From contig OX422192.1 of assembly GCA_949130485.1 (NCBI GenBank), positions 6,673,085-6,737,084 on the forward strand: a DNA stretch of 64,000 nt. Direction: 5' to 3'. Shown one piece after another: positions 383-49,190 of the stretch (positions are counted from its first letter, which is position 1; each line of letters begins with the position of its first letter). Under the pieces are notes generated by a model, which made no database searches, was not told the origin of the DNA, and saw only the letters and a list, made by a program, of their open reading frames with translations. Both the position numbers and the translations under genes were made by a program. This DNA is from Agelas oroides (lineage: Eukaryota; Porifera; Demospongiae; Agelasida; Agelasidae).

Positions 383-1578
383 CTACTAAGACTTGTAGGT
401 GTGGTCTCTAAACTGGGGTAGCACTTACAGCTTTGAGGTTGAGAAAACAGTTGACTTGGTCAGGGGAGAAAACAGTTGACTTAGCCAGGGGGGTTAGAAG
501 CTGTGACAATATAGCTAATATGGTCCTTGTTACTGAGCTGGTTGGTGGTATAATTTTAGTCGCTAGTATGTGCTACAGTAGTATATACCTATGGTGAATC
601 TGGCAGTGATTTATACTTAGAATTCACTATAATATAGAACCTCAGATTTGGTACTTCATATACCCAGGAGCATATATGGACCACCACACCTTATATACCT
701 TGTATCTGCTTTTTGAAAGCTCACATGTACCTGGTTCACAGCTGCAACTTCTTAATGCTTTCCTCAATGCTTCAAACACACATACCAGTTCTGTCACTAC
801 GTACTAGTATTAGAGATCAATGGGCCAGGGAACCCTTTTATTCATAAGTAGCTACTGGTCTAGAGGGATCAATTTTAATTGGCCTCGATGTCTACTGTGG
901 GAGACCATTTAGATCTAAACCAGAAATAGAAGTAATTACCGTAGTCTCGCAAAAGTGGGAGACCATTTAGATCTAAACCAGAAATAGAAGTAATTACCGT
1001 AGTCTCGCAAAAGAGCACCCACCATCAAAAGAGCGTCCACCCCCTACTTAGGGTCAAAGTTTACTTGAATGAGTGCCCACGTCATCCTGGAGCAAGCTTC
1101 ATGTGGAGTGCACTCGTGGAGTGTTGAGAAGCATAGTCACAAGCGCTATGCATATCTGAGGTAAGAAAACTTTGCATTTCACCTTACCTGAAGTGTGGTT
1201 TTGCATCGTAGCCGGCTACTGGGGCCATTCTCACTAGCTACACCACGCTTACTGTGGCGTTTTGCCATTCAGAGTGTTGTGTGGCGTCAGAACTTGAATT
1301 TCCAAGGTCAGCGGCTCAGTTCTAAGTTATTGTTCATCCAACACTTCAGCCAATGAGTCGCTATAAACATGCATGGGCGCTCTTTCGTGGTTAAATGCGG
1401 AAACACTTAAAAGGGCGCTCACCCCTCTTTGGCAGGCTTGCAAGGTGCCCCACCCATGGGCACTCTTTCGCGAAACTACAGTATATGTTGTACATGCATA
1501 AGGTCTTGCATTCTCATCAGTTTTTTCAACCTATGCATGCAAAAAAGACGACGGTCTTGGTTTCATATGTCCAAGTAT
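383..1578. other. Intergenic stretch with small direct repeats
   Basis: No convincing gene is seen. A 17-base motif is repeated 25 bases apart at 441 and 466, and a 58-bp direct duplication lies at 897-1012. A CpG-containing stretch follows at about 1100-1460 with no supported product. Confidence 0.5.
897..1012. repeat. 58-bp tandem duplication (two units)
   Basis: Units 897-954 and 955-1012 are essentially identical and each ends in the motif GTAGTCTCGCAAAA. The same motif recurs alone near 53985 and, in variant form, at 12115, so the unit probably derives from a dispersed element end. The lack of divergence suggests a recent duplication or an assembly join. Confidence 0.8.
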
Positions 1579-1678
1579 TAGCCTCGTTCCCAGGCCCTCG
1601 CCCAGCTTCCCGTCGCTTGCAATACGGTACCGTACTGCAAGCGATGGGAAGCTGGGCGAGGGCCTGGGAACGACACTA
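1579..1678. mobile_element. 100-bp foldback MITE with 9-bp target duplication
   Basis: The element is an almost complete palindrome: arms beginning TAGCCTCGTTCCCAGG fold onto a complementary right arm around a centre near 1627. It is flanked by identical 9-bp direct repeats, TCCAAGTAT, at 1570-1578 and 1679-1687. Duplications of 8-10 bp are typical of MULE-type transposition, so a non-autonomous MULE derivative is inferred. It belongs to a family found elsewhere in the window (32431, 41934, 42173, 44581, 48674). Confidence 0.85.
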
Positions 1679-1952
1679 TCCAAGTATGTTATATGTAAAT
1701 TAATCTGTTCATACAGAAGTGGGGCAAATAACTAGGTTTTCAGATTCACATGGTTGATTGAGCATGACGAGCATAATTAGATGCGTAAACTGGCAGCCCA
1801 AGATGCACATAAAATTCCACTGCATGCATAAGCAATTAACCAGCTTTCTCCACTCAGGCTGGCTTCCCTCAGTTGTAACATGGCTTAAAGAATTATAGAG
1901 TGGGGTTTTGCAGATCTGCGTGATACTAATACTGTTGACTTCATCATTTCAG

Positions 1953-2821
1953 AGTCGGTACCAACAAGGAGGGTACACCGCAAAAGATTGTGCTGCTGCT
2001 TCTGTATAACAACTTTTGTGATCATCATGGTTATGCTAGTAGCTGTACTGATCACACTCTCCCAAGTGCCACACGTCAGCTCTTCAGTAAATCCCCACTA
2101 TGTATGTGGCAACAGCACAGCAGAGTTGCTGTTTGACAACATGCCTTGGCTGGGTCAAATTGCACTTGCAATGGACAATTGTGAGGGCCAGCTGTACCAG
2201 ATCCAAGACCAGGATTGTCGCACACTGCCAACACTAAACACAAGCTATGTTGATCCTAATGACCGAGTAAACAATATTTACATGCTACCTGGATCAGTAA
2301 TTCACTTTTCTGTGGACCCCAGTGCAAGAGGACAAATATGGATACTTTCTGGTCTAGAGTCCAATATTGCCTATTTCAATCACCCCACATCTTTTGACTG
2401 TCACCACCCGCCACCTGGAGCGTACTGCTTTGAAGCTGAAGACCACCCAGGACAGTACCCTTATTATGTTACACAACCTGATTATTACTTTCTACAGTTC
2501 CGCCCTCAAGACCTTCAGGGTGTTCATTGGGACTTCAACCGAACCATTTTTGATATTAGGAAAATTGCTGACAAATACCCAAGCGTCACAACCCTGACAC
2601 GTGATTATTACACCATCTTCTTCCCCTTTCCATACAAGAAGAGTCGCATCTTGTTGTACATTCCCCCGCTGACATGTGAATGTGATGAAATGATGGCTGC
2701 CAATGCTGTAAGACAAGATGACTATCTCATCTTTGCAGCCATACCTACTGTCATATGTACTTTAATAATTGTTGTAGTTGTGGGTGTGTGCATATACCGC
2801 CACTTCAGAAAGAATTGTTAA
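1953..2821 (+). CDS. 3' terminal exon of a two-transmembrane-segment surface protein
   Basis: An acceptor AG at 1951-1952 opens an exon that reads without interruption to TAA at 2819-2821, about 289 residues. The first residues are strongly basic (RRVHRKR), followed by a hydrophobic helix of about 23 residues. Next comes an ectodomain of about 210 residues with several cysteines and N-glycosylation sequons, then a second hydrophobic helix and a short basic tail. The basic-then-hydrophobic start suggests the N-terminus is cytoplasmic and the middle is extracellular. There is no in-frame ATG near the exon start, so the start codon must be in an upstream exon. Intron phase at entry is 1. No family is recognised. 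Confidence 0.75.
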
Positions 2822-3796
2822 TTCTCTGTGGGACAGTATCATTATGTTTTGTACACTGGTGTCTTAGGAGTGTTATTGTTGCAGTGCTGTGTGGTTGTTG
2901 TTACATGATATGTAGCTGTGCTTGTGCTTGAGATGTGTACATGTACATGCAACTGCCAATACACAATCAAATTGTTTCATGCATGTTGTGTTTGTATGAT
3001 ATTGTGGTGGAGTAATCAAGCAAGGAGTATTATTGAGGTTGACTCTGCATGCATGTGGGTTACACACATGTAGGACATGTAATTTTTGGTCGGTACCAGG
3101 TATGTGCACAACTCATGCATGCTCCTTCATGAAGATCTTGGAAGCTACATCTAGTCTTATATTGCTAGAAGAGAAATCCATCTGGTGGAGACTTAATGCT
3201 ATGCCATTTGGAATGAGTGCTTGTTCACACAAGAAACAAGAATAAGTATATAGAACATGGGAATGGCATGCCAAAAATTATTTGAGATGATGTAAAAGTG
3301 AAGGTAATGTAGCTACTAAATTTTCATTCATGCTTACAGCTTTTTTTTGCTGTAGTTTTTTGTGTGTCTTTTTTTTATGCTAGAGTGCATACAACCTGTA
3401 TAAGTTAACTGTGTAAAAATATTACATCCCAAGTGGAAATTACACCCGAAGTGGAAAATAAAATAAAAAGCTGAGTAAAGGCCACACCACAAGTACTGTA
3501 TACCACAGCTGCAGGACTTGTGTAAACTCTGTATTAAGCATGTAACCGCACAGTGTTTTCCAACTGAACTGAGTGGCTTCACCATCAAGAATTGTATACT
3601 CAGGCTTCTGTACACACCTAGATGTGCAGTATACATGCATATTTTACATTTTTCTTTCCACTTGGGGTGCAGTTAGCCTCAAAAAAAGTCCACCCCAAGT
3701 GGAAAGAAATAAAAATAATGATTGAATGTTGAGAACAGCCATACGAGTGTTTACATATGCCTGTACTGTTTTAGTCTTTCTCTCCCAATCTAACAG
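2822..3796. other. 3' flank and intergenic DNA
   Basis: AT-rich sequence with no supported exon. It holds a short hairpin at 3648-3712 built from the CCACTTGGGGTG motif. Confidence 0.5.
3648..3712. repeat. Short hairpin of the CCCAAGTGGAAAG terminal-repeat family
   Basis: TTTCTTTCCACTTGGGGTG is followed about 20 bases later by its near-exact inverse complement. The same terminal sequence bounds the element at 9069-10117 and recurs at 18686, so this is probably a minimal deletion derivative of that element. Confidence 0.65.
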
Positions 3797-3959
3797 GCCC
3801 TACTCAAGTTTCATTATACAGCTGCGGAAGCAGTTATTGAAGTATCTACGATTGAAGCGCTAAGGCTGAGAACTTATCCACAACGAGTGCACGAGGCGAA
3901 ATATTTGACACCCACGAAGGAACCTACTGTCAACCAGGATTTCATAGTAGCCAAGCTAG
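3797..3959 (+). CDS. Internal coding exon of an unidentified plus-strand gene
   Basis: The pyrimidine-rich stretch ending AACAG at 3796 is a good acceptor and GTATCT at 3960 a plausible donor. Between them one frame is open for 54 codons plus one base, with a soluble-protein composition: an alanine/glutamate-rich helical stretch, then a basic segment containing YPQRVHEAKYL. The other two plus frames are closed by stops. Candidate following acceptors lie at 3991, which would need an implausibly short 32-base intron, and near 4446; both reach stops soon after. No domain is recognised. Confidence 0.55.
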
Positions 3960-4541
3960 GTATCTTAACATGAAGGTAATTGTATTTGCAGAACCTGACA
4001 TCACCCCGAGTTACAGCTCCTGAGCCTTGTATAAAGACTATGGTTTGTACATCTATAAGGTACACATTTCTGTGATGACTACACTTATTTATGACAGTAA
4101 CATAATGTGGTTCATATATGAATGCCAAGTGCATGCATGCATCTAGGCGCATTTTAGGGTACTGTGGTTCAGGTACAGATATGTTGACTAGCTAATAGTA
4201 GATGGTCAATGCAGTGCGTAAGTTAGACTAGCTGCTGCTACTATGGCATGAGGGGATTTCTTGCAAGACACAAAAACATTAATGCTTACAGTCCTAACCC
4301 TAGATTTTCACTGCACAGTCACCATGCTTTGCAGTAACTTTATCGACACAACTGGTTCTAAAATAGCTCATTTTCAAATTACAAGACTTTGTTTCACTAT
4401 GTGAAGCCAAGGTTTCTACCATTATTGGAAAACACGTGTGTTTCAGAACAAAGCTGTGAGTATGGTTTTCTCTGATTTTTGAAGGAAAACATGGTTACTG
4501 CAAATTTCTAGAACACTACCACGTTATGAGTAACTATACTC
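3960..4541. other. Intergenic or intronic DNA
   Basis: No clear gene. An acceptor-like pyrimidine tract ends near 4446 and could start the next exon of the gene at 3797-3959. Phase fits, but only about nine codons follow before a stop. Confidence 0.35.
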
Positions 4542-9060: not shown

Positions 9061-9068
9061 GAGCATAG

Positions 9069-15726: not shown

Positions 15727-16905
15727 TAAGACTTGAAAAAACATTAAAAATGTAAAAGGATGTAGGGATGGCATGCCAAAAAGCATGCAAACAAGGTAGG
15801 GATGATATAATAGTGAAGGTAAATTAACAAAGCCTCATCCCTGCATCTTTTTCACATTAGTTTGCAACTGTAATGTAAAAAGATGTAGGGATAGGGCTTT
15901 GTAAATTTACCTTCACTATTATATCATCCCTACCTTGTTTGCATGCTTTTTGGCATGCCATCCCTACATCCTTTTACATTTTTAATGTTTTTTCAAGTCT
16001 TGTTTCTGTACTTTTTTGATGTTAATCTCAGTTACAGTTAGACCTAAGCCTATGAAGAAATTTTTCTTTCAAAACTTGAAACGGGATTGACAATTTAGTA
16101 GTGGTTCCAAGCATATAATAACTTTGCCAGCTAGAATCTGATGAGGGCCAACCACTCTCCGGAGCTTCGCACGATAAACCGATCTCCTGAATGTGTGGCC
16201 TGACGACTGACCAGCTGCAGCACAGTTTACTAAAGCTGTGAGTAGCTACTTTATTTAGTGTAGCTATAAGTTAGCAGCTGAATGCAGCGCCTTACCTGTG
16301 TGGCGTTCGTAAACCTTGCCCACTACGGGAAGAGACCGTGCCGGCCGTGCGCGTGGTCCACTCGCGATTTCGCTCGTGCACTAGCCTCGTTCCCAAACAA
16401 TGTGATCGTGGTATTTGGCCTGGGAACGAGACTACATGTGCGCATGCGTACAACATTAGAAAATGGCGTCCTTCGCAACGGACAGCAACCACAGAGTGTT
16501 GTGAATGGCTTTTATCGACCAGGATGAATTTGAGACTATGAAGACGCTGAGTGGTTGGGAAGCTGCGCACTGTGATGAGCATCCGTTTCGTGCTAAAATC
16601 AAGGTGAGTGCTTGAACCGTTTTTGAGTTATCGTTGTTTGAACAAAAGTCGTAACAAGAAAGAAAGAAAAGAAGAATACGAAAAATGGCACTTTTGCTAT
16701 CGCACACTTTTGTGTTTAGCTGTCTTCCGCGTGGCTTTTGGCCACTTATATGAGTCTTGCTGATCACAAAGGCACTCAAAGAGGAAGCCTGGATGCTTAA
16801 ATAAACTTTTTGCGTGTTTGTGGTGAAGTTATACGGCTTTTGCTTAAGTATTGCATATATTGCGCGTCGGCGCCATCCCTACATAGAGAGTCTACCGACT
16901 CTCTG
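15727..16905 (+). mobile_element. Composite foldback element, copy A
   Basis: The left part (15728-16001) is a long inverted repeat with arms of about 125 bp containing GGATGTAGGGATGGCATGCC. It is followed by about 900 bp of unique-looking sequence ending in the palindrome AGAGAGTCTACCGACTCTCT (16886-16905). The same order appears at 32143-34092 and 44245-45852, and the right end alone appears inverted at 36431-36662. The unique part includes a TAGCCTCGTTCCC MITE-like palindrome and the exon-like ORF at 16505-16603. No transposase is visible, so it is non-autonomous or a promoter-bearing fragment of a larger element. Confidence 0.75.
16505..16603 (+). CDS. Exon-like 33-codon ORF with splice donor inside the composite element (copy A)
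   Basis: ATG at 16505 opens 33 codons, beginning MAFIDQDEFETMK and including LSGWEAA, which end exactly at AAG|GTGAGT (donor at 16604). The orthologous positions in copies B (33683-33780) and C (45448-45546) keep the ATG and donor, but copy B has lost one base. Of the codon differences between A and C, eight change the residue and two are silent, so there is no sign of purifying selection since the copies separated. It may be the first exon of the element's parent transposase or of a captured host gene. Confidence 0.45.
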
Positions 16906-24472: not shown

Positions 24473-26574
24473 CTATGCTTGTAAACTGGCAATGATTCTC
24501 ATTTCCATCCCTCAGCTATCATCGTTTTAATCATAAGTGAATGAATATTTATGCAGTCTGCTAGCTACACAATTCATGCATGTATTGAAGTCTGGGCCGT
24601 CTGCTGACTGCACTCACCTCAATATTAATGTGCAGAAGTAATTATGTACCACCTCAAATAGCTATAGTTTGTATATATACCAACAGCTTGTTAATTAAGA
24701 ACCCACTGCCTTTACAATTAGAGAGCTAACTAAACATAATTCCAAATGCATCACAAATGTGTGGGGGCCTTTATTTATTTAAATGGGAGCCCTTGTTTAT
24801 AAATGCACCCCATCATTTATAAATAAGAGCTTTCAATGGGAGTCCTCATTTATAAATGTGCCCTATCATTTATAAGTGAAGACATTTGTCTTAGTTTTGG
24901 TACAAACAGCTTATTTTTGTCATGCATACCCCATAACATGTTCATGGGATTTCACTCAATAGCTGAATGTGCATTGCACGTACGATATGCACACCACTCT
25001 AAAATGTGATCTACACCCTTAAGCAGTACCCACTGCCTTTTACAGTGGTATCATGAAGTTGTAGTTATGTCTGTACTGCATCACAGCAACTGCTTATATT
25101 TAACCTACAGTGACACATCCTACTCCATGTATGCCATAGTAAGGTATGCATGTTTGTGTTGTCTTGCATGTGGTTAAGGTGTGTCTATTTAGTACTTACA
25201 GTAAGAGTTTGGAGGAATGGAACCCCCCAAAAAGGAACCAAACAAGGTAGGAACATCATCACCATCCCTACATTCTTCCAACCACGCACATACAGCCTGC
25301 TACATGCCACATTAGCCTATTCAGACAGTGAATGATTGTAGTACTTCCACTAAATATAAATTCACAACATAACTCATTCCTCGTGCACACCAATGTGCAC
25401 TGCAGATCGACTGCTCTCTCTACACCTTGCACATACAATTGTTACAACTTAGCAAAGCGCTCTGACTTCTAACAACTGTATGGCTAGTGACAACTATTTT
25501 TTTCAACTTTAAGAAATGTCAATAGTTCAATGTACTCATATCCATGCATTTGCATACAAGGTTGTACAATTATCCTAATTAACTAGCACCACATAGGATG
25601 TTTGGCAAAACAGCAAATATGTAGGGATGGTGTAAAAGTATCGTGTCATTCCCATCTTGTTTTGGTTGTTTTTGAGGGGCTCCATCCCTACTCCCCATGA
25701 TGCACCTGTTATCTTTATTGGACTCCATCCTCTCTTTTCAACCATGAGTGAATGGATGTGCAGTCCTCTAAGTACAATACTGAGACCATGCAACTACACT
25801 CCTCTCAAGTTTAATGCAATGAAGTTAAACTAACTTAGCTGTAGGCCTCCATTGCATCATCAAGATATTTTTGTAATGCACATTCCGCCATATGGGAATC
25901 ATAGTTGCAGGATTTCATGAAAACTGTATACCGTAGCTGAGGATGCCAAGATGCATGGACATCATATTCTGTTACTAGCAACATGTAGCTCATTCCCTGG
26001 CTCTCTCCTCAAAAAGAGCCAGCAATACACACACTTCTCTGCAATCTCATTTTTATTGTACATATTGTGGCAGTAGCCACTATCTATTACAGTAAAAATT
26101 CAGTTATATCACAAAGGGTTGTAAGTCCTCACTGCATCACAGCAACTGCTTGACTTATCATATACATTGACACATTCTTCTCACATGGGATTCAGGTGTG
26201 CCCTATACATAAGGTTTGAAGAAATCCACTGTTTGTGGACAACATCCTGCATGTGGTTCAGGTGTGTCTAATTACAGTGAGAATTTAAGGCTTCTGAATT
26301 GGTGAAATGCGTGCTTAGCTATAAAATAATATTATAACCTGCTCAATCATTCTGCATGGTGAAAGCAGCATTATTGTTACATAAGCCAAAATAGGCGTCA
26401 AACAAACAGGAAGTATGTTAAGTGATGGCATACAACTGCAATGTGCTGACATGATATATAGCTGAAGCATGTTCATTGCAAAGTACAAACGGCGACTCTG
26501 CTGCAGTGTAAGAGGTGAGGTCTGCATGCAAACAACTATAGTAAATTGATGCTAAATAACGTTCTTAATCTGGC
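24473..26574. other. Intergenic or intronic DNA with one degenerate foldback
   Basis: Short direct duplications of the CATTTATAAAT type lie at 24790-24880. The stretch 25206-25690 is flanked by divergent inverted arms of the GGATGGAACCCTC family. No other structure or gene is supported. Confidence 0.4.
25206..25690. repeat. Degenerate foldback of the GGATGGAACCCTC family
   Basis: Left arm GGAATGGAACCCCCCAAAAA and right arm TTTTTGAGGGGCTCCATCCC are inverse complements with mismatches. Between the arms the order TAGGAACATCATC...TCATTCCCATCTTG matches the family member at 48378-49190. Confidence 0.6.
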
Positions 26575-29130
26575 ATGCTTATAAGATGCTTTGTTATTGC
26601 ATTCATGTTAGTGTACCTCCTTTCTGCTCACCATCACAGAATGCAGCAAGCAATCATCCTAATCACTGCTCTTCTACCTGCCCTCTTGCTGCCAATCTGT
26701 GTTGCAGAGCATGTCTATTATGTCACCCCAAACTCGGAAACTCCCTGTCCCTCAACACCATGTCACAATCTCAGCTACTACACCACATTTCCCCAGCAGT
26801 GGATGTACTTCAGATCCAACACAACCTTCCAGTTTCTTCCAGGGATACACATTCTGGATACAGATGGACTTGTCCATATCAACTCTGAACACAACATAGC
26901 ACTAAAAGGTCACCCTGGACATGAAGTGTCACCACCTGAGTCTAAAATTTCTTTCCAGCCATCCAGCAAAATCTGGTGCACCAAACCTGCTGGTTTCATG
27001 TTTGAGTTTGTGGAGAACCTGTTAATAGCAAATTTGTCCTTCACCAATTGTGGTTCATCGTTTCATGATGAATACCAAAACAGGGTAGGTTTTTCTAGTT
27101 CAACACTACAGTTTTTTGAGGTTACAAATCTTGCAATTTCACATGTAGTTGTTCAGAACAGCACTGGCTATGGAATGATAAGCTATAATCCAGGAGGAAG
27201 TGCAGAGATTTCTCAATCAGCATTTTTATTCAACCATGGTGACACTAAGTACACTGGTGGCAATATGATGATGTTAATCGCCAACAGTGAAATTGAAGTT
27301 GAACATGACTGCAGTGAATTGGGGGTTAACTATACATACCTTTCACTCACTATTCAGTCCACATACATCCTCTATGGGGATACACCACAGCCCAATACAT
27401 TATTCTCACAAGGTTTGGATGTTGTCCTTGGCTATTCCTGCACTAATGTTGATATCAAGCTAGACAATGTTACTCTTTCTAACAATGGTAGAAAGCATGC
27501 ATCGACCAAATTTGGTGGCAATCTACGTATTTTCTCTACATCAATTCCAAGTGTTTACCGGCGTGTTACTATTGTCAACTGTTACATTGAAGGTGGAGTA
27601 GCCTCATATGCTGGGGGAGGCATTGCCATCATTATAGGTGATACAACCCTAGTAGAAGAAGACCAGAAATGCCTCAACGCAACTAACAACTCAGCAAATA
27701 AGATCAATATTTCCAATACAGTTGTGACAAGCAACACTGGTGGTGGGGTGTCTGTTTACATCAACGCCTGTACCAAATACACCATTGAAATTAGCCAGGT
27801 CACATTATATGATAACAAGATTACTTACTCACCAACTGGTGTGGGCTTCGGTGGAAATCTCCAAGTTACTTTGATGCCCATTCTTGCAGAGACGCCACTG
27901 TTTCATTTCTTGAGCATAAGTAACAGTACATTGCAATCTGGAATTGGACCATCAGGTGGTGGTGCAGGAATAGTAGTAGGATTTGCAGACCCTTTTCAAG
28001 ATGGTACAGCCTATCATTGGATGTCCATAACAAATACACAGTTCATTGGTAATATTGGTGAGTATGGAGGGGGAATGGCCATTATGATTGTCTACCCACA
28101 CAGCAGCTACAATTTGAAAAGGATACCTCCACATAAAAGTGTAGGTACTGTACATGTACACAACACTACTTTTGTGGACAATACTGCTTGGATAGGATCT
28201 GCCATATTTGTCAACAACTTTCTCAACCCACTTGCTATTGGAGGATCACACTATTTCACATTTGAGCAGACTTCATTCCATCATAACCATAATGATCTAA
28301 GGCTCAATACATCATGGTCAGCGTTCTATAGATTCAGCCTGTCTGTTAGACTGACCAGCAAAATGCATCCGTCAACAGCCTTTTTCTCTGCGGTACACAA
28401 TGTAACTTTTTCTAACTCTGAATTTACTCAAAATAGTGCAACAGCCTTGACTTCTGAGCGAACCAACATATTCTTTCATGGCAACAACTGTTTCAAGGAA
28501 AACAATGGGACATATGGAGGTGGACTGCAGTTACTGTTGTATTCTTTCGTGCATCTTCTGCCTCCAGTGAATGTACTCTTCATTGACAACCATGCCACTA
28601 AACTAGGTGGTGCTATATACTTTGGAGATGATCACACCATCATGGGGAACACTTGCTTTTTAACACTGGCTAGGTTGGAAGATGCTGATGCAACAGTTCA
28701 CTTCATCAATAACACAGCAGTTGATGCTGCTGATGCAATTTATGGCAACCCTATTAAAGTGTGCAAAGAAAGTTCTATAATTTGGATGCCTTTAATTGTT
28801 AAGAACATATACTCTGTGTTGAATGTCAGTGGGCAATCTGGAAATTCCATTGTAGCAACCGACCCACGTAGAGTATGTTTCTGTGAACACAGCGAGCCCA
28901 ACTGTACTAAACTGTTCTATTCAACGGAAGCATTTCCTGGAGAGGATTTAGCCATATCCTTGGTAGCAGTAGGTCAGGAAAATGGAACAGTCCCAGGCAC
29001 AGTACATGCAAATGTCAATGAACCTGCCACTATGGGTGACTTCCAGGAATTGCAGAAAACCAGCCGCCACTGCACCAATGTTACATACACTATTTTTTCA
29101 AACAGCTCACCATTAATGAAGTTTCCTTAA
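26575..29130 (+). CDS. Beta-helix ectodomain of a large membrane protein (frame 1)
   Basis: The frame is open from ATG 26575, but ATG 26641 is the better start. It begins MQQAIILITALLPALLLPIC, a typical signal peptide with likely cleavage before EHVYYVTP. The following 800 or so residues have recurring Asn-Asn-Thr/Ser-x-x-Asn motifs and Gly-Gly-Gly turns (YAGGGIAI, YGGGMAI, YGGGLQL, LGGAIYFG), as expected for a right-handed parallel beta-helix of the polymorphic-outer-membrane-protein repeat type. Many N-glycosylation sequons agree with an extracellular location. The frame ends prematurely at 29130; the homologous continuation is in another frame from about 29100. Confidence 0.75.
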   Translation: MLIRCFVIAFMLVYLLSAHHHRMQQAIILITALLPALLLPICVAEHVYYVTPNSETPCPSTPCHNLSYYTTFPQQWMYFRSNTTFQFLPGIHILDTDGLVHINSEHNIALKGHPGHEVSPPESKISFQPSSKIWCTKPAGFMFEFVENLLIANLSFTNCGSSFHDEYQNRVGFSSSTLQFFEVTNLAISHVVVQNSTGYGMISYNPGGSAEISQSAFLFNHGDTKYTGGNMMMLIANSEIEVEHDCSELGVNYTYLSLTIQSTYILYGDTPQPNTLFSQGLDVVLGYSCTNVDIKLDNVTLSNNGRKHASTKFGGNLRIFSTSIPSVYRRVTIVNCYIEGGVASYAGGGIAIIIGDTTLVEEDQKCLNATNNSANKINISNTVVTSNTGGGVSVYINACTKYTIEISQVTLYDNKITYSPTGVGFGGNLQVTLMPILAETPLFHFLSISNSTLQSGIGPSGGGAGIVVGFADPFQDGTAYHWMSITNTQFIGNIGEYGGGMAIMIVYPHSSYNLKRIPPHKSVGTVHVHNTTFVDNTAWIGSAIFVNNFLNPLAIGGSHYFTFEQTSFHHNHNDLRLNTSWSAFYRFSLSVRLTSKMHPSTAFFSAVHNVTFSNSEFTQNSATALTSERTNIFFHGNNCFKENNGTYGGGLQLLLYSFVHLLPPVNVLFIDNHATKLGGAIYFGDDHTIMGNTCFLTLARLEDADATVHFINNTAVDAADAIYGNPIKVCKESSIIWMPLIVKNIYSVLNVSGQSGNSIVATDPRRVCFCEHSEPNCTKLFYSTEAFPGEDLAISLVAVGQENGTVPGTVHANVNEPATMGDFQELQKTSRHCTNVTYTIFSNSSPLMKFP

Positions 29131-29484
29131 ATGCGATCACATCCACGATCACCATTCCTCAAATCATACTTGTTCATCTTCTTCCCTGTCCATTAGGGTT
29201 TACACTTACCACTGCAGGTACCCAACAAAAGTGTGACTGTATACACTTGCTGCAAAGACACGGCTTCATCTGTGATATTCGTAGCCAGACAGTTGAGCGC
29301 CCACAGGGATATTGGGTGGGATATACCAATGCAGTTACTAATGGTAGCAATAAGACGGTGGTAACTTTACACCAACACTGCCCATTTGATTACTGCATTT
29401 CAGCAACCATGAACATGAGCCTGAGAAATCCCAATAAGCAGTGTTCATTCAACCGTTCTGGAATTCTTTGTGGAAAATGCAAAG

Positions 29485-30837
29485 CAGGTCTTTGGGACCT
29501 CACAATGTCTGAAATGCTCCAACACAAGTTTGTTACTGATATTTGCATTTATAGCAGCTGGCCTACTTTTTGTGGTATTGCTAAGCAAATGCAACATCAC
29601 CATTTCCAAAGGAACCCTTAATGGACTGATCCTCTATGCAAATATAATACAAATGAACAAAGCCAGTTTCTTTACACTTGGCTACACTAGCTCTCTAGCA
29701 ATGTTTATTGCCTGGCTAAACTTGGACCTTGGCATTCAAACGTGCTTTTACAATGGGATGGATATGTATGCCAAAGCTTGGCTTCAGTTTGTGTTCCCCA
29801 TCTATATCTGGGTGATAGCACTTTCTATGATTGTTTCAAGTCACTATTCCACCAGTGCAGCGAAAGTAGTAGGTAGAAATGCACCCCAAGTACTGGCAAC
29901 CCTCTTTCTCCTTTCGTACACAAAGGTCATCAGAACAGTGATTGCAGCACTTTCATTCACATCACTTGAACCAAAAGGGCATCCACCAGTTTGGTTGTAT
30001 GATGGAAACATTCAGTACCTTAGTGGGAAGCATATACCTCTTTTCCTTACTGCAGTGATTGCTCTGCTCACTTTGTCTATCCCCTACACCTTGTTCATTC
30101 TTTTTGCCCAGTGCCTCCAAAGGTCAACGTGTAAGTTTGCCAGGGTCATAATACGGAGATCAAAACCCATCATTGATGCCCACACTGGTCCATACAAGGA
30201 CAAATTTCGCTTCTGGGCTGGCTTACTCCTTTTGGTTCGAATTTTTCTCCTAGTTGCATTTGCTGGGAACATTTCAGGTGATCCATCACTCAACCTCCTT
30301 CTTGTATTAACAACGGTGCTCTGCCTTCTTGCTTTGCAGTGGGCTTTCCATGGGCTATATAAACAGTGGCCACTGGACATTCTTGAAGCATTCTTCCTTG
30401 TGAACACCAGTATGCTCTCTGCTGCTACACTATACCTCAGACAATCTGGTGGAAATCAAGCTGCTGCAACAGATATATCTGTCAGTGCAACCATAACAGT
30501 TTTCATTGGGATTATAGTGTACCACATTGCTACACATACCACTACTGTGAAGCTGCTGGCAAAGATGTCAACCTGTTACCAAATGACCAAGAACCATCAC
30601 AAGAACAGTGCAACGCTTACACGTCAGCTAGTGAACATAGTAGATGAGGAAACTGGTGACAGATCTGATTCACAAGAGGACAATTTGGCACAACCCTTTG
30701 CCAGAGTGCAGCCTCTGAGGCTGACATTTGATGAAAATAATGAGCCTGTTTTAGTTGCCAATGAGGAGAACCAAGCAAGTGTGCAGATACCCACTCTTGA
30801 TGAAGACAAGACATTGTCCATCACTCACAACGAGTAG
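29485..30837 (+). CDS. Multi-pass membrane domain of the same protein
   Basis: From VFGTSQCLKCSN the frame runs about 450 residues to TAG at 30835-30837. About eight hydrophobic helices are visible. The diagnostic stretches AWLNLDLGIQTCFYNGMD, HYSTSAAKVVGRNAPQVLAT, GPYKDKFRFWAGLLLL and GDPSLNLL match a family of beta-helix/multi-pass proteins I associate with demosponge genomes. The acidic cytoplasmic tail of about 90 residues lacks motifs I recognise. The ATG at 29470 is out of frame with the cysteine-rich linker before it and is unlikely to be a real start. No enzyme motif is seen; a sensing or adhesion role is only a guess. Confidence 0.75.
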   Translation, partial: QVFGTSQCLKCSNTSLLLIFAFIAAGLLFVVLLSKCNITISKGTLNGLILYANIIQMNKASFFTLGYTSSLAMFIAWLNLDLGIQTCFYNGMDMYAKAWLQFVFPIYIWVIALSMIVSSHYSTSAAKVVGRNAPQVLATLFLLSYTKVIRTVIAALSFTSLEPKGHPPVWLYDGNIQYLSGKHIPLFLTAVIALLTLSIPYTLFILFAQCLQRSTCKFARVIIRRSKPIIDAHTGPYKDKFRFWAGLLLLVRIFLLVAFAGNISGDPSLNLLLVLTTVLCLLALQWAFHGLYKQWPLDILEAFFLVNTSMLSAATLYLRQSGGNQAAATDISVSATITVFIGIIVYHIATHTTTVKLLAKMSTCYQMTKNHHKNSATLTRQLVNIVDEETGDRSDSQEDNLAQPFARVQPLRLTFDENNEPVLVANEENQASVQIPTLDEDKTLSITHNE

Positions 30838-32430: not shown

Positions 32431-32580
32431 TTACCCTCGTTCCTAGGCCCGAAGACTGGGCGAGGCTACTCAGCAGTAGTCTTAGATCGTTCTCAGGCCC
32501 CGCCCATCTCTCCGTCGCTTTTCTATGCCGGAATGCTAGGCGGGGCCTGTGAACGAAGCTACAGTAGTCTCGTGAGACTA
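32431..32580. mobile_element. 150-bp foldback MITE (9-bp duplication family), compound
   Basis: It is flanked by identical CCTCAGCAG at 32422-32430 and 32581-32589. Inside are two tandemly arranged CTCGTTC..AGGCC palindromes, and the right end reads CGTGAGACTA. The left end is slightly altered (TTACCCTCGTTCC). It looks like one family member carrying another. Confidence 0.75.
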
Positions 32581-32853: not shown

Positions 32854-33682
32854 GTAAGTGTATTTTCAAATTTTTCGCAACGCGACTATCGTTATTCAAC
32901 GAATACGAATGTATTTACGGTACGACGTACGAATACATACATACATACATACATACAGACACCGCTTGCGTTCAACACGTTAATGTGGGGCTCGCTCAGG
33001 CTCGTCCCAATAATAGTGAAGGTAAATTTGCAAAGCCTCATCCCTGCATCGTTTTCACATTAGTTTGCAACTGTAATGTAGGGATAGGGCTTTGTAAATT
33101 TACCTTCACTATTATATCATCCCTACCTTGGGTGCATGCTTTTTGGCATGCCATCCCTACATCCTTTTACATTTTTAATGTTTTTTAAGTCTTGTTTCTG
33201 TACTTTTTTTAATGTTAATCTCAGTTACAGTTAGACCTAAGCCTAAGAAGAATAAAACTTGAAACGGGATTGACAATTTAGTAGTGGTTCTAAGCGTATA
33301 ATAAAAGTGTCAGCTAGAATCTGATGAAGGCCAACCACTCTCCGGAGCTCCGTAGATAAACTGATCTCCTGAATTTTCGATCACATGACGACTGACCAGC
33401 GGCAGCACAGTTTACTAAAGCTTTGAGTAGCTACTTTATTTAGTGTAGCTACAAGTTGGCACCTGAATGCAGCACCTTACCTGTGTGGTGTTCATAAACC
33501 TTGCCCACTACGACGGGAAGAGACCGTGCCAGCCGTGCGCGTGGGGGATCGCTCGTGCACTAGCCTCGTTCCCAGACAAATGATCGCGGTATTTGCCCTG
33601 GGAACGAGACTACATGTGCGCATGCGTACAACATTAGAAAATGGCGTCCTTCGCAACGGACAGCAGCCACAGAGTGTTGTGA

Positions 33683-35041: not shown

Positions 35042-35922
35042 ACTGCAAAAATAAACATTAGTTGTTTTAACAACTGAATGGACACCCTGATTGCAGACAA
35101 GCTGAGGAAACAGTGGTTATATGAGATGTTTAATTGCTATTAGAGGCTAACTACATATAAGCAACCTGAGCCCAAATCGTATCTTATGCAACTGACAACA
35201 TTAGAACATCTGTTAGGGAGACACTACCCATAAGCTCCTGACTTCAAAAATATGATGCTATTTTGTGGTGACTCTCTCACAGATATTCACTTTTCTGCAA
35301 GATTATGGTTGTTATTGCATGCTCTTTGATACATGCAGGTGTACCCCTTTCAACATTCAGATATTCAGACTTCAGATGATATGCAAAGATATTTGCAATA
35401 TCATGGTTGAGAGATGACATGGAAGCTTTCTCCCTAGTGTTGTTATTACAATATATGCTCTGTAAAAACTAACATCACTACCTGGTAGTGATGCTTAGGC
35501 CAATTTTCGGTCACCTGGTAGCTAGTGAAGTTTGTGCCAATTGTCAGTCACAAAGTCATTTCCTGGCACAGTAAGCGATGTTTGTGGCAATTGTCAGTCA
35601 CGAACATCACTACCTGGTAGCTAGTGAAGTTTGTGCCAACTGTCCACAAACATCACTACCTGGTAGTGATGTTTGTGGCAATTGTCAGTCACGAACATCA
35701 CTACCTGGTACCTAGTGAAGTTTGTGCCAACTGTCCACAAACATCACTACCTGGTAGTGATGTTTGTGGCAATTGTCCTCACAGACAATTACCACAAATA
35801 TCATGTGCACTACCTAGTGACTTTCACCATTTAATTTCCCCAGGAGAACCACTGTCTCTTCAGCTTGTCTGCAACCAGGGTAACCACTCAGTAGATTAAA
35901 ACAACCAGCTTGTTTTTGCAGC
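35042..35922. mobile_element. Terminal-inverted-repeat element with internal minisatellite, copy 1
   Basis: The left end (ACTGCAAAAATAAACATTAG, then GTTGTTTTAAC and TTGCAGACAAGCTGAGGAAA) is matched inverted at the right end (35850-35922) over about 60 bases with mismatches. Interior 35470-35790 is a variable tandem of CATCACTACCTGGTAGTGA and TTTGTGGCAATTGTCAGTCA modules. A second copy is at 46345-47195 and an end fragment at 51023-51128. No protein is coded. Confidence 0.75.
35470..35790. repeat. Minisatellite of self-complementary CATCACTACCTGGTAGTGATG modules
   Basis: Seven or so modules alternate a near-palindromic CACTACCTGGTAGTG core with GTTTGTGGCAATTGTC. Unit lengths vary (about 45-65 bp), as if modules were gained and lost individually. 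The equivalent array in the second element copy (46668-47060) has a different module order. Confidence 0.8.
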
Positions 35923-41933: not shown

Positions 41934-41973
41934 TAGTCTGGTTCATGTGTGAGAGGGTCTGGGCATGAGACTA
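41934..41973. mobile_element. 40-bp foldback MITE with 9-bp target duplication
   Basis: Termini TAGTCTGG... and ...GCATGAGACTA; flanks GTTGCAGTC (41925-41933) and GTTGCAATC (41974-41982) agree at 8 of 9 bases. Confidence 0.75.
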
Positions 41974-42172
41974 GTTGCAATCTGACCATGAGAGTAACTT
42001 GGTTTCAGAACAAGGCCAGCATTCTTAATTTTGCAGCCTCATTCCCAGGCCCACCCGCACTTCCAGTTTAATTTGATCGATTGCTTGCAGTATGTGAAGC
42101 AAATAATGTCTTCATACACAGGCCCTATTTTACACAAGCGCATGGTACGATAGCCTCAGTCCCAACCATTGC

Positions 42173-42206
42173 TAGTCTCGTACCCAGAGGTCTGGGCATC
42201 AGACTA
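42173..42206. mobile_element. 34-bp foldback MITE with 9-bp target duplication
   Basis: TAGTCTCGTACCCAGA and TCTGGGCATCAGACTA form almost the whole element, with a loop of two or so bases. It is flanked by identical AACCATTGC at 42164-42172 and 42207-42215. Confidence 0.85.
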
Positions 42207-44580: not shown

Positions 44581-44621
44581 TAGCCTCATCCCCAGGCCTG
44601 TTCGACCTGGGAACGAGGCTA
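44581..44621. mobile_element. 41-bp foldback MITE with 9-bp target duplication
   Basis: TAGCCTCATCCCCAGG and CCTGGGAACGAGGCTA are near-perfect inverse ends. Flanks are identical ACTGCAGAC (44572-44580 and 44622-44630). Confidence 0.85.
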
Positions 44622-45447
44622 ACTGCAGACTTGTGATAGTGTCTTTAAAGTATATGGCATGGTTCTAGCCTCGTCCCCAGGCCCTTTTCTTCTCCCACAG
44701 GCCGGCTCATAACGAGGCTAATATGATCTAGCAGCATTGCATCAGCTGTAGTGTGAAAAAGATGTAGGGATGGGGCTTTGCCAATATGTTGACCTTTGCT
44801 TTCATGCATTATCCCTATCTTGTTTGCCTACTTTTTGGCATGCCATCCCTACATCTTTTTACATTTTTAATGTTTTTTAAGTCTTGTTTCTGTACTTTTT
44901 TGATGTTATTCTCAGTTACAGTTAGACCAAGTGTAACCGCAACACCAGAACTTTTGAAACGGCGTTGACAGTTTAGTAGTGGTTCCAGGCATGTAATAAT
45001 TATGTGTAATACTGGTATAGCAGCTAGAACCTGATGAAGGGCCAACCACTCTCCCTACCAAACTTTGTGAAACAAATTTCATGATTCAGTTGTCATGACG
45101 ACTGACCAGCTGCAGCACAGAAAACTATCATACTGACACTGATGAACTGACCATCCTAGCTTTACAGTTCACTAAAGTTGTGAGTAGGCTATTTTAGTGT
45201 ATAGCTACAAGTAGGTAGCGCCTTACCTACGTGGTGTTCATAAGCCTTGCCCAATGCCGCGGGGGGAACCCGGGAAAGACCGTGCCAGCCACGCGTACTG
45301 CCCGCTGGCCATTTCGCTTGTGTACTAGTCTCGCTTCCAGACCAATGACCGTGGTCTTTGGTCTGGGAACGAGACTTCGTGTGCGCATGCGTACAAAATT
45401 AGAAAATGGCGTCCTAAGCAACGGACAGCAGCCTCAGAGTGTTGTGA

Positions 45448-45546
45448 ATGGCTTTTGTTGACCAGGGTGAATTTGAAGCTATGAAGTTGCTGAGTGGTTG
45501 GGAAGCTGCACGCTGTGATAAGCATCTGTTTCGTGCTAAAGTCAAG
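45448..45546 (+). CDS. Exon-like 33-codon ORF in composite element, copy C
   Basis: The frame is intact, starting MAFVDQGEFEAMKLLSGWEA and ending at AAG|GTGAGT (donor at 45547). It is homologous to 16505-16603. See that entry for the comparison; most differences alter residues. Confidence 0.45.
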
Positions 45547-45852
45547 GTGAGTGCTTGAACCGTTTTCGAGTTATCGTCGTTTGACAAGTGGTCTGAACAA
45601 AGAAGAAAGAAAGAAAGAATACGAAAAATGGCACTTTTGCTACCGCACACTTTTGCGTTTAGCTGTCTTCCGCGTGGGTTTTGGGCAACTATATGAGTCT
45701 TGCTGATCACAAAGGCACTCAAAGAGGAAGCCTGGGCGCTTAAATAAGCTTTTAGCGCGTTTGTGGTGAAGTTATACGGCTTTTGCTTAAGTATTGCATA
45801 TATTGCGCGTCGGCGCCATCCCTACATAGAGAGTCTACCGACTCTCTGATAA

Positions 45853-46344
45853 ACAGCTTCTCCAGTGGTTAGTCGAGGGGGTAACGTAAAGTATTCGTGA
45901 CTAACAAATGCCGGGGGGAGTTCGTACCGCGAAACGCCACAAAAAGTGACTTTCCAATAACAGTTTCAACTCGCCATCCGTTAAGCTTTACAGCTTATGA
46001 CCAAAACTCTACGTAGCCCCCTCTAGCGACTGTTGAACTTTCTACTCGCCAAGAATGGAGTATGTGGCTCGCGTACCGTGCGAGTGAAACGTGATGAAAA
46101 TTTGTAAAACTCAACCACTGCTCTCCGTGCTATTTCCTGTAGCATGGTATCAAGATTTGTTACACAGATAGTACTTGCCATACAGTACTTGAGTATCAAG
46201 TTTGGCTGTAAGTGATTGCACAACTAGTAAGATGAGACATTTTATATATGGCAGATAATTTATTGTGAAATTATTTACCCGCTACCTTAAAGTACATGCA
46301 TGCATGCATGCAATATATATATATATATATATATATGCATGGGT
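45853..46344. other. Intergenic DNA with ATGC/TA microsatellite
   Basis: TGCA and TA repeats at 46292-46337 border the next element and have probably eroded its left end. Confidence 0.5.
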
Positions 46345-47195
46345 ACCCCGATTGCAGACAAGCTGAGGAAGCAGTGGTTATATGAGAAGTTTATTTGGTA
46401 TTAGAGGCTAACTACATAAGCAACCTAAGCCCAAATCATACCTTATACACCGACAACCTTAGAACATCTGTGAGGGAGACACTACTCATAAGCTCCTGAC
46501 TTCCAAAAAATGATGCTATTTTGTGGTGACTCTCTCACAGATGTTCACTTTTCTGCAAGATTATGCATGCAGGTGTACCCCTTTCAATATTCAGATATTC
46601 AGACTTCAGATGATATGCAAGGATATTATGGTTGTGAGATGACATGGAAGCTTTCTCTGTAAAAACTAACATCACTACATGGTGTGATGTTTGTGGCAAT
46701 TGTCAGTCACAAACATCACTACCTGGTAGCTAGTGATGTTTGTGGAAATTGTCAGTCATGAGCGTCAATACCTGGTAGTGATGTTTGTGACAATTGTCAG
46801 TCACACACATCACTACCTGGTGGCTATTGAAGTTTGTGGTAATTGTCAGTCATGAATATCACTACCTTGTAGCTAGTGAAATCCTCAGTCATGAATATCA
46901 CTACCTGGTAGCTAGTGGCAACTGTCCACAAACATTGCTACCTGGTAGTGAAGTTTGTGGCAATTGTCAGTCACAAATGTCCCTACCTGGTAGCTAGTGA
47001 AGTTTGTGGCAATCCTCAGTCACAAACATCACTACCTGTTTGTGGTAATTGTCCTCACAGACAATTGCCACATAATATGCACTACCTAGTGACTTTCACC
47101 ATTTAATTTTCACAGGAGAACCACTGTCTCTTCAGCTTGTCTGGAACCAGGGTAATCACTCAGTAGATTAAAACAACCAGTTTGTTTTTGCAGTG
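46345..47195. mobile_element. Terminal-inverted-repeat element with internal minisatellite, copy 2
   Basis: Matches 35042-35922 from TTGCAGACAAGCTGAGGAA to the right end GTTTTTGCAGTG. The outermost 40 bases of the left end are missing, replaced by TA microsatellite. The internal CACTACCTGGTAG array (46668-47060) has a different module order from copy 1. Confidence 0.75.
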
Positions 47196-48200
47196 GCATT
47201 TCTGGAAACGGTTTGGTTACACAGTTATGGTAGAAATGCCATTAACTCCGTAGCCAAATACGACATCTGAAAGAAGAAACTATAATTTAACTAAAGAAGC
47301 AGCTCTTGGCATTCCTGGGATTTCTGATAATGATACGTATCACTTTGGTTGAACTGAGATAAGCTACAAATATGGTCAAAGTAACCTAATTTTAGTGACT
47401 ATAGTGCGTGGGCGGATCGAAGGCGCCGCATGCTGTCATATATGGCATATACACCCCGCTGTTGCGCGCGCAGTAAGTATATTGCTGAGTCAGGGGTGTA
47501 TATTTGGCAATTCACAACTGCAACACGGAGAAACGGAGGTTTTTGCAATGGAATGGCCAATTCCCCCCAGTCCTCACTATAGGAAAGCCACTGCCAGCAC
47601 TATAGAGCCCCCGTACTGTACTCAGTGCTAGCACAACAGCCAAAGCGTCACACAAATTTTCCAGGTTATTCGTGCAGCGATACAGTGCTTACTTGGTGTG
47701 TTGAACCACGCACGGCTGGACAGACGCTACTGCTTCCTGGCAGGTAGCCACTACCCTGACGGATGCCGACGATTATTTTACTCGCCAGGCGGTTGATCCG
47801 GGGATAGCGCTAGGACCAGTTTGTATTCGACGAGTCGTTGCCACCACTGCCAGCTGAACTGCGAGGCTGGGCGTTCTACTGCCAGCTCGAATCATTGTTT
47901 CATGATCGCCAGCTTCCAAGAGCGGCTAGGTAGCAAGCTAGCTGCCCATTCGGCATCATGGCCGAGCGCCAGCAGCATCACGGTTTCAAGTCGACACGCC
48001 CTTCGTCATGGCTCAGACTCTGCCTTAACTGCTGAGATGTTTCGGGTGTCCTTTGGTGGCCTAAGCGTACCCAAACCCATCCTTTTCCAGTCAAAAAGCA
48101 GCAGCAACGCACAACGACACTAGCCTCATCGGATTCAAAATCATAAAATGCAATACCGGAAACGGAATCGCTTATGTAATCCACCCGCGCAGTATTATAT
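47196..48200. other. CpG-rich stretch without a supported gene
   Basis: 47400-47510 contains an imperfect inverted pair (GCATATACACCCC/GGGGTGTATATTTGG). Frames at 47821-48123 (plus) and 47978-48184 (minus) are open over the same DNA; neither shows a domain or good splice pair. It may be a first-exon or promoter region. Confidence 0.35.
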
Positions 48201-48356
48201 TAAGGAGGTGTATATCGCGAATCATACTATCCTCGACCTCGGTCATCGGAAGTTTGCAGTTAGATATACCCCGAGCCGTAGGCGACGGAGTATATCTACT
48301 GCAAACTTCCTCTAACCTCGGTCTCAGGTAGTATATTCCCCATATACACCTCCTTA
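48201..48356. mobile_element. 156-bp foldback MITE (TAAGGAGGTGTATAT termini)
   Basis: Ends TAAGGAGGTGTATAT and ATATACACCTCCTTA are exact inverse complements, and the interior continues as an imperfect palindrome (AGTTTGCAGTTAGATATAC against GTATATCTACTGCAAACTTCC). The interior of the pair near 47440-47510 is related (GTGTATAT). No clear target duplication. Confidence 0.75.
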
Positions 48357-48377
48357 CTAGGGTTTATATAATTAAAG

Positions 48378-49190
48378 TCACAAAAAAGTTTTCTGAATGA
48401 AAACAAGTGCATGTAGGGATGGAACCCTCAAAAACCAACCAAACTAGATGGGAATGACACCACAACAATTTCACACCATCCCTACATCTTGTGCCATTTT
48501 GCCAACTATGCTTTGTGTTTGTTAGTTGTGTTCATAGGAGGGTTGTGGAAGGCAGTGGGATGGGTAGTGCTGGGTGTGGAGTGCATGTTGATGTGCATGG
48601 GGGGTGAGTTATGTTGTGGGTGGCTGTGATGTAATTGCTATGCTGGGGATAGCAGGTATGGTCTGTCTTGAATTAGTCTTGCAAGCCAGACCCTTTCTGC
48701 GCAGCACCGATCGCTTTCAGTATGCGGCACACAGAGGGAAGAAGTTTGATGTTTGGATTTACAATTTCACTTCAAAGCATTTATGACGATTCTTAGTGCC
48801 TTCCTCTGCGTGCCGATACTGAAAGCGATCTGCACTGTGGAACGGAAAGGGTCTGGCTTGTGAGACTAGTCTTGAATGCAGAAACAGTCGAGTGCATGAG
48901 CTGGGTCTGTTGGAGTAAGTGATGTTGTGAAATTTTATTGCTGCTGAACATGGCAGATATGGATTGTCTTTATGTAAAAGGCTGTGGAGTGAGCAGCGCT
49001 AACTACAGCTAGTATTCATTTAGTGGGTGTGAATAGGCTAGAGAGTTTACTGGTGTGCATAGTTGGCAAAATGGCACAAGATGTAGGGATGGTGTGAAAT
49101 TGTTGTGGTGTCATTCCCATCTAGTTTGGTTGGATTTTGAGGGTTCCATCCCTACATGCACTTGTTTTCATTCAGAAAACTTTTTTGTGA
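48378..49190. mobile_element. Full-length GGATGGAACCCTC foldback element
   Basis: Arms at 48378-48512 and 49055-49190 are inverse complements over about 130 bases with few mismatches. The 540-bp centre has no recognisable ORF and contains the MITE at 48674-48868. Partial relatives are at 8893-9060 and 25206-25690. The motif ATGTAGGGATGG in the arms is shared with the composite elements. Confidence 0.8.
48674..48868. mobile_element. 195-bp MITE with 9-bp target duplication, nested
   Basis: Termini TAGTCTTGCAAGCCAGACCC and the inverse GGGTCTGGCTTGTGAGACTA, flanked by identical GTCTTGAAT (48665-48673 and 48869-48877). The arms extend inward through ATCGCTTTCAGTAT. The loop (about 48750-48800) resembles the inverse of 49330-49380. 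Confidence 0.85.

What the first reader, a model, noticed from the sequence alone, without database searches (positions are those of the whole stretch)
1570..48877. A family of ultra-short (34-195 bp) foldback elements with 9-bp target duplications
Six loci share TAGYCTCG...CCCAG termini and have flanking 9-bp direct repeats: TCCAAGTAT (1579-1678), CCTCAGCAG (32431-32580), GTTGCARTC (41934-41973), AACCATTGC (42173-42206), ACTGCAGAC (44581-44621) and GTCTTGAAT (48674-48868). Five are perfect. Three elements are only 34-41 bp, little more than two ends joined. Such minimal units with intact duplications imply that the transposase needs only about 16 bases of each end, or that internal deletions occur after insertion. 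The 9-bp duplication points to MULE-type transposition.
Basis: partly seen in the sequence, partly recalled or inferred. Interest (0 to 1): 0.75.

Follow-up and report, generated by a model that had tools for sequence, protein, structure and literature searches.

The report
Collapsed foldback transposons of 16-60 bases
Tiny hairpin-like DNA inserts in an unnamed, probably animal, genome are real transposon insertions with 9-base target duplications, and many look like longer transposons that lost nearly everything except their two tips, so they are not good evidence for a transposase that needs only 16 bases.

Summary
All six loci are real; five have perfect 9-bp duplications, one has 8/9. Locus 2 is a composite. 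The family is genome-wide (unnamed 259-Mb genome): exact TAGTCTCG...CGAGACTA palindromes number 109 at 16-29 bp, 1071 at 30-60, 420 at 61-91 and 98 at 116-146 bp (controls 0, 4, 1, 3). In the first 50 listed of the 1071, 14 have an exact 9-bp duplication; shuffled flanks average 0.28. One 323-bp copy has an empty counterpart in 99.5% identical DNA.

The ultra-short units are best read as collapsed elements. One subfamily has 26 copies of 299-328 bp, and 19 of its 27 distinct 36-66-bp units are exact joins of the long elements' two ends, sharing 0-10 nt. Identical 37-59-bp units sit at unrelated places with different perfect duplications. That would suit mobile mini-units, but recurrent joining 17-31 nt from the ends predicts it too.

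The transposase is unknown: MULE (119) and P-type (48) domain matches exist; the one MULE family whose ends I resolved has other ends.

The parts
1579..1678 (.). 100-bp near-perfect foldback element, TAGCCTCGTTCCCAGGCCC left end; duplication TCCAAGTAT at 1570-1578 and 1679-1687 (9/9)
32431..32580 (.). Composite: 37-bp unit 32432-32468 and 104-bp unit 32477-32580, separated and bracketed by three copies of CTCAGCAG (32423, 32469, 32582)
41934..41973 (.). 40-bp unit, duplication GTTGCAGTC/GTTGCAATC (8/9)
42173..42206 (.). 34-bp unit: two ends joined; duplication AACCATTGC (9/9)
44581..44621 (.). 41-bp unit, TAGCC type ends; duplication ACTGCAGAC (9/9)
48674..48868 (.). 195-bp foldback, TAGTCTTGCAAGCCAGACCC left end; duplication GTCTTGAAT (9/9); by eye its left end resembles the 70-bp units L136-L138
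16382..16434 (.). 53-bp palindrome in shared flanks tcgctYgtgcac/catgtgcgcatg: copy of an old insertion amplified inside another repeat, no 9-bp duplication (6/9)
33561..33612 (.). 52-bp palindrome, same flanks as 16382 (6/9)
44666..44720 (.). 55-bp TAGCCTCG...CGAGGCTA palindrome without duplication (4/9)

Best explanation
These are non-coding cut-and-paste DNA transposons (foldback/MITE type) with TAGYCTCG ends, inserted by an unidentified transposase that duplicates 9 bp of target. Longer forms (about 60-830 bp; one subfamily has a ~313-bp form among 26 long copies) are the inserted elements. The ultra-short units (16 to about 60 bp, including the window's 34-, 40- and 41-bp units) are collapsed elements: the two terminal regions were joined, usually with 0-3 shared bases, sometimes through a 10-base repeat near each end, so that roughly 8-36 bases of each end and both target duplications remain. 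Shown: 9-bp duplications, one empty site, the long elements, and end-to-end joins in one subfamily. Inferred: that collapse mostly happens at or after insertion (as an excision scar or a hairpin/direct-repeat deletion), and that other subfamilies, including the window's, behave alike.
For: 9-bp duplication: 14/50 exact and 20/50 at >=8/9 in the sampled 30-60-bp places, against means of 0.28 and 0.48 in 1000 flank shuffles. Empty site: 323-bp element between two GGGTCAAAG in L195, one GGGTCAAAG and no element in the paralogous L085. Size peak: 109, 1071, 420 and 98 places at 16-29, 30-60, 61-91 and 116-146 bp, whereas uniform breakpoints in a 313-bp element would give rising shares (2.1%, 4.3%, 8.2% for the last three). 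Joins: 19 of 27 distinct CGTAG units are exact joins of two observed long-element ends; 21 of 41 typed CGGAG rows are exact joins of ends that I had to infer. The 54/55-bp units are what deletion between the GAGAGTCTGG copies of the two ends would give. Six 60-69-bp units fit different centre deletions of an 81-bp unit, with 0-2 other differences.
Against: Identical units of 37, 45, 47, 48, 51 and 59 bp occur at unrelated places with different exact duplications, and 41 bp with 9/9 and 8/9, as mobile mini-units would. Loci that share flanks mostly keep the unit's length: 37 of 39 loci in 7 groups not chosen for identity; 24 more loci in 10 groups were picked because identical or look-alike and cannot count, and copies outside the searched length class would be missed. 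Short units have very clean duplications (13 of 18 groups exact in one subfamily, 14 of 19 in another), though exact ends favour young copies. 8 of 27 CGTAG units and 20 of 41 CGGAG rows are not simple joins of the ends used. The duplications of the 26 long copies were not read. I did not search for long and short forms at one site; none came up. 16 of 41 independent 30-60-bp groups show no duplication.
Confidence: 0.68

Rival explanations
1. The 37-59-bp units are themselves mobile: the transposase needs only ~18-25 bases of each end, and some units have amplified as such.
For: Identical 59-bp unit at three unrelated places with CTTTGCTAT, CCAGGAACC and GGCGGCATG; 51-bp unit with AGTGTTGCC, TATGTTCCA and GGTGGGCCA; 37-bp unit with CTGGCTTTG, GGACTTTAT and CTCCAGAGG; 47- and 48-bp units twice each, all exact. 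A second 51-bp unit has 9/9, 8/9 and an 8-bp repeat, a 55-bp unit 9/9, an 8-bp repeat and none; a 69-bp unit 9/9, 9/9 and none. If joins could fall anywhere 15-60 nt from the ends, so many identical pairs would be unlikely (P=0.001; 0.004 for a triple like the 51-bp one). Same-flank loci mostly keep their length.
Against: If joins are confined to 17-31 nt from the ends, as observed (a range chosen after seeing the data), chance recurrence explains the repeats (P=0.27; triple 0.07). The same 37- and 45-bp products exist in two linker types. In the 50-place sample, units differing by <=2 edits always shared flanks at least in part.
Confidence: 0.3
2. The short units are excision scars of a P-element-like transposase whose staggered cut lies inside the element, leaving part of each end between the two target duplications.
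For: Bounded length of kept ends and low microhomology at joins; perfect duplications around remnants; 48 matches to a P-type transposase domain, with open frames up to 572 aa. That Drosophila P leaves up to ~17 nt of each end is recalled, not looked up.
Against: P elements usually duplicate 7-8 bp (recalled), here 9. No P-type gene was linked to TAGYCTCG ends; their surroundings were not read.
Confidence: 0.25
3. Ordinary MULE MITEs: a Mutator-like transposase moves them.
For: 9-bp duplications; 119 MULE-domain matches in the genome; animal MULE/foldback families with 9-bp duplications are published (Tm1 PMC3169594; Muta1 PMC5225508, 8-9 bp; passages seen).
Against: No MULE gene found inside TAGYCTCG ends with a shared duplication, apart from one MULE nested in such an element in L129. 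That MULE family ends in GGGATTCGC, with an exact 10-bp duplication in L131, 9/10 in L129 and none in L130. Only 37 of 119 matches were read: 30 at +/-1.5 kb (6 of them again more widely) and 7 more widely.
Confidence: 0.5
4. Chance palindromes, or a hairpin repeat spread without transposition.
For: Many copies are passively amplified inside other repeats (24-bp and 52-bp groups), and 16 of 41 independent groups show no duplication.
Against: The sharp 9-bp excess, the empty site, and controls of 0-4 palindromes against 109-1071.
Confidence: 0.02

Closest known systems
Tm1 Mutator/Foldback family of root-knot nematodes (PMC3169594; passages read)
   Same: 8-10-bp, mostly 9-bp, duplications; foldback ends with repeated motifs; most copies MITE-like and non-coding
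   Different: Tm1 ends are CGGTTAA/CCTACCC; its transposase-coding element is known; MITE-like copies are described as typically less than 0.5 kb, and no 16-60-bp class appeared in the passages read
Muta1 MULE of Aedes aegypti (PMC5225508; passages read)
   Same: 8-9-bp duplications; palindromic terminal motif; many non-autonomous derivatives with truncated ends
   Different: 145-bp ends; excision with duplications present was about 90% precise, and up to 13 bp of end was left occasionally in the test without duplications
Drosophila P element and foldback P relatives such as Galileo (Galileo seen in listings; P footprints recalled)
   Same: Excision scars keep both duplications plus part of each end; foldback ends
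   Different: Usual duplication 7-8 bp (recalled), here 9; no coding element linked to these ends
Tn10 'nearly precise excision' (recalled; the one paper listed is not a primary report by its title and was not opened)
   Same: Deletion between short repeats near the two ends of an inverted-repeat element leaves about 50 bp inside the target duplication
   Different: Bacterial; here many joins have only 0-3 shared bases
Repetitive hairpin-forming elements of sponge mitochondria (PMC2800124; passages read)
   Same: Very short palindromic repeats, possibly in a related organism
   Different: Mitochondrial; the passages read leave their transposition mechanism open; their sequences were not compared with these

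Membership tests
Non-autonomous cut-and-paste DNA transposon (MITE/foldback) | Terminal inverted repeats | tested here: met
Non-autonomous cut-and-paste DNA transposon (MITE/foldback) | Target duplication of fixed length | tested here: met
   9 bp; a few 8- and 10-bp cases, and many copies without one
Non-autonomous cut-and-paste DNA transposon (MITE/foldback) | Empty site without element and with one target copy | tested here: met
   one case, L195 against L085, for a 323-bp copy; none for an ultra-short unit
Non-autonomous cut-and-paste DNA transposon (MITE/foldback) | Mobilised in trans by a coding relative with the same ends | tested here: inconclusive
   no such relative found in the loci read
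MULE (Mutator-like) | 8-11-bp duplication | tested here: met
   9 bp; range from PMC6446971 passages
MULE (Mutator-like) | Encodes or shares ends with a MULE transposase | tested here: inconclusive
   the one MULE family with resolved ends has GGGATTCGC ends; 82 of 119 matches not read
P-element superfamily | P-type transposase with the same ends | not tested
   48 P-type domain matches exist; surroundings not read
P-element superfamily | 7-8-bp duplication (recalled) | tested here: not met
   9 bp dominates

The most novel reading that the evidence does not exclude
DNA units of 37-59 bp, little more than two ~18-25-base ends, move and multiply as independent cut-and-paste elements, which would put them among the smallest mobile elements in a eukaryote genome.
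Probability: 0.3. Interest if true: 0.7.

Novelty: new variant of a known kind. Interest (0 to 1): 0.5.

Why it matters
A 16-60-bp class of transposon remnants with intact target duplications could easily escape MITE annotation (inference), yet it outnumbers the longer classes that I counted with exact ends. If the units are scars, they record element loss at known sites, and the kept-end lengths may show where the ends are cut or protected. If they are mobile, they set a lower limit on what a eukaryotic transposase needs. The two cases can be told apart by comparing individuals or related species at the listed places.

Tried and rejected
Rejected: 'same 24-bp unit many times means a 24-bp transposon': all 19 fetched members of that group share flanks, so it is one insertion amplified in a larger repeat (18 are 24 bp, one 21 bp). 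Likewise the 27-bp (5 loci), 36-bp (4 loci) and TGCCC-type 37-bp (3 loci) groups. Rejected: L083:1800-4305 as an autonomous element: ends flank a MULE fragment but the duplications do not match, and near-identical copies run past its right part. Rejected: L129:2258-7587 as the helper: the MULE inside has its own ends and is nested. Led nowhere: Rfam (no hit); TAGTCTCG in papers (14 listed, none about such elements by title or abstract start); 'shortest MITE' wording (20 of 47 listed, none on transposons by title). Dropped: a search with PF12762 (not completed); the TAGCCTCG palindrome count was never run.

Weak points of my own counts. Flanks were fetched for the first 50 of 1071 places, all on one contig; 40 of 109; 20 of 420, chosen as look-alikes among those listed; 19 new places for each of two subfamilies, chosen mostly because units repeated; 18 new places of 58 in the TGCCC subfamily. 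The join test concerns only the centre: the pattern fixes 34 bases. 'Same flanks' means >=20/25 identity on one side.
Full report
OBSERVATION. The six loci and their duplications were read directly. Five of six are perfect 9-mers and one is 8/9. Among 91 pairs of TAGYCTCG-like ends within 250 bp in window 1-55500, four have 9/9, two have 8/9 and none 7/9; 0.0004 exact matches are expected. Locus 2 is a composite with three CTCAGCAG copies. Palindromes at 16382, 33561 and 44666 lack the duplication.

GENOME. The lengths shown for C1-C23 run from 32.7 to 6.8 Mb. That pattern, 23 large contigs with one largest, recalls the freshwater sponge Ephydatia muelleri (23 chromosomes, chromosome 1 much larger; PMC7385117, passages). 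That it is an animal, and a sponge, is a guess; no call names the organism. Exact TAGTCTCG...CGAGACTA palindromes: 109 at 16-29 bp (control 0), 1071 at 30-60 (control 4), 420 at 61-91 (control 1) and 98 at 116-146 (control 3; several rows are visibly two neighbouring elements).

TARGET DUPLICATION. Of 50 sampled places (first 50 listed of 1071, all on C1), 14 have an exact 9-bp repeat and 20 at least 8/9; exact repeats of 6, 7, 8, 11 and 12 bp: none; of 10 bp: one. Pairing flanks at random gave a mean of 0.28 and a maximum of 3 exact 9-mers in 1000 shuffles. After grouping loci that share flanks, 41 independent groups remain: 13 exact 9-mers, 5 at 8/9, 4 at 7/9, one exact 10-mer, 2 with inverted flanks, 16 with none. 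In the 16-29-bp class, 40 of 109 places were fetched, 17 groups: 6 exact, 2 at 8/9, 2 at 7/9, 7 none. It includes a 16-bp unit, TAGTCTCGCGAGACTA, between two GGAGGAGAA (L106). In the 61-91-bp class, 20 of 420 fetched, 16 groups: 8 exact 9-mers, 3 at 8/9, 1 at 7/9, one exact 10-mer, 3 none. A direct empty site exists: L195 holds a 323-bp element between two GGGTCAAAG, while the paralogous L085 has one GGGTCAAAG and no element; the two copies are 99.5% identical over 2167 bp.

TWO KINDS OF MULTIPLICATION. Some identical units merely ride in larger repeats: the 24-bp, 27-bp, 36-bp, TGCCC-type 37-bp and 52-bp groups share flanks. In the 7 same-flank groups that came from the length-class samples (39 loci), 37 loci keep the group's length; L110 (21 bp) and L043 (44 bp) do not. 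Ten further groups (24 loci) were picked because identical or look-alike and prove nothing here. Other identical units sit at unrelated places with different perfect duplications: 37 bp (three places), 47 (two), 48 (two), 51 (three) in the CGTAG subfamily; 59 bp (three) and 45 bp (two) in the CGGAG subfamily. Less clean: one-base relatives of the 59-bp unit have 9/9, 9/9, an 8-bp repeat, or inverted flanks; a second 51-bp unit 9/9, 8/9 and an 8-bp repeat; a 55-bp unit 9/9, an 8-bp repeat and none; 41 bp 9/9 and 8/9, another 59-bp unit 9/9 and 8/9; 69 bp 9/9, 9/9 and none, 81 bp 9/9 and 8/9.

LONG ELEMENTS AND COLLAPSE. In the CGTAG subfamily 26 places have both exact ends (17 and 16 bases) at 299-328 bp, 14 of them at 313; the search window was 298-328 bp, and their flanks were not read. 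Of these, 23 have ends that read, or nearly read, TAGTCTCGCGTAG, CCAGACTCTC, a short loop, GAGAGTCTGG, then interior (with irregular ends in a few); three have a longer CACACGAAAA loop. The inner GAGAGTCTGG of one end is thus a direct repeat of the outer GAGAGTCTGG of the other. Deletion between them would give exactly the observed 54- and 55-bp units. Of 27 distinct short units at 41 places, 19 are exact joins of two such ends, with overlaps of 0-3 nt apart from one of 5 and two of 10; 8 are not. In the CGGAG subfamily 21 of 41 typed rows are exact joins of inferred ends; there the shorter kept end is 17-25 nt and the longer 21-50. The search pattern itself sets the lower limit (15-19 nt) and the total (66 bp); the fall from 1071 to 98 places with length does not depend on that pattern. 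Six 60-69-bp units fit different centre deletions of an 81-bp unit.

MOBILE OR COLLAPSED IN PLACE. A recurrent-join model in which breakpoints may fall 15-60 nt from the ends under-predicts the identical pairs (3.0 expected, 11 observed, P=0.001; a triple with one shared base P=0.004). Confined to 17-31 nt, a range taken from the data, it predicts 9.2 pairs (P=0.27; triple P=0.07). An earlier version with a fitted weight per shared base gave 12.9 pairs against 14 observed, but too few low-homology clusters (0.39 expected, 5 observed). So the repeats alone do not decide. The clean duplications, and more weakly the length stability of same-flank loci, speak for short insertion or for collapse at or soon after insertion; the joins and the size peak speak for collapse of longer elements. 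I rate collapse as the origin of the short forms likely, and mobility of some short forms possible (about 0.3).

TRANSPOSASE. 119 MULE-domain matches and 48 P-type matches. The surroundings of 37 MULE matches were read: 30 at +/-1.5 kb, six of these again more widely, and seven others more widely. No TAGYCTCG pair with duplications of at least 8/9 encloses a MULE gene (one search left out 13 redundant loci and looked up to 2500 bp), except L129:2258-7587 (8/9). There the MULE (474- and 291-aa frames; the first has MULE and ZSWIM RNaseH-like domains) has its own 41-bp ends GGGATTCGC and is nested. Copies of that MULE are flanked by an exact 10-bp repeat, CTCTGGCAAT (L131), by a 9/10 repeat (L129) and by none (L130). 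The helper of the TAGYCTCG family is unknown.

LITERATURE. Passages of PMC3169594, PMC5225508, PMC6446971, PMC2800124, PMC7385117 and PMC12595863 were read; other papers were seen only in listings. Searches of this partial library showed no description of these elements among the papers listed. The Tn10, P-footprint and Drosophila details are recalled.

Noticed in passing
L180 (C19:3628240-3628298), L054, L071: Elements without a target duplication whose two flanks are inverted copies of each other (about 60 bp around L180, about 20 bp around L071), as if the hairpin had started a local inverted duplication.
   Followed up: partly
C1:17781887 against L176-L178; linkers in the 50-place sample: The same 59-bp interior occurs with CGTAG on both arms and with CGGAG on both arms. 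In the 50 places, both linkers could be parsed in 27 elements: 13 the same, 14 different. Arm-to-arm copying in the hairpin is possible.
   Followed up: partly
L129-L131: MULE family 99% or more identical over about 4 kb between three places (94-97% in the last ~850 bp against L131), 41-bp ends GGGATTCGC, 10-bp duplication CTCTGGCAAT in L131: may be recently active.
   Followed up: partly
window 55936-63973: About 8 kb of degenerate AGTAGAGTC-like tandem repeats up to nearly the window's end.
   Followed up: no
window 54242-55984 (-): Pieces of an LTR-retrotransposon-type pol gene (integrase and RNase H domains) next to the tandem array.
   Followed up: no
window 35479-35778 and 46668-47038: Two arrays of a GTGATGTTTGTGGCAATTGTC inverted/direct repeat, which also mimic duplications in a strict scan.
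   Followed up: no
L024 against L025 (around 1936-2321): A stretch of about 385 bp with a strong palindrome, without TAGYCTCG ends, present in one of two 99.8% identical copies: perhaps another foldback element.
   Followed up: no
window 26569-30837: Two long open frames (853 and 470 aa), by eye a secreted repeat-rich part followed by membrane segments; no Pfam match.
   Followed up: no
L021:154-174: A single 21-base end (TAGTCTGGCTACGCGAGACTA) between two exact copies of GCCTGAGAC: the terminal motif is itself an imperfect palindrome.
   Followed up: no
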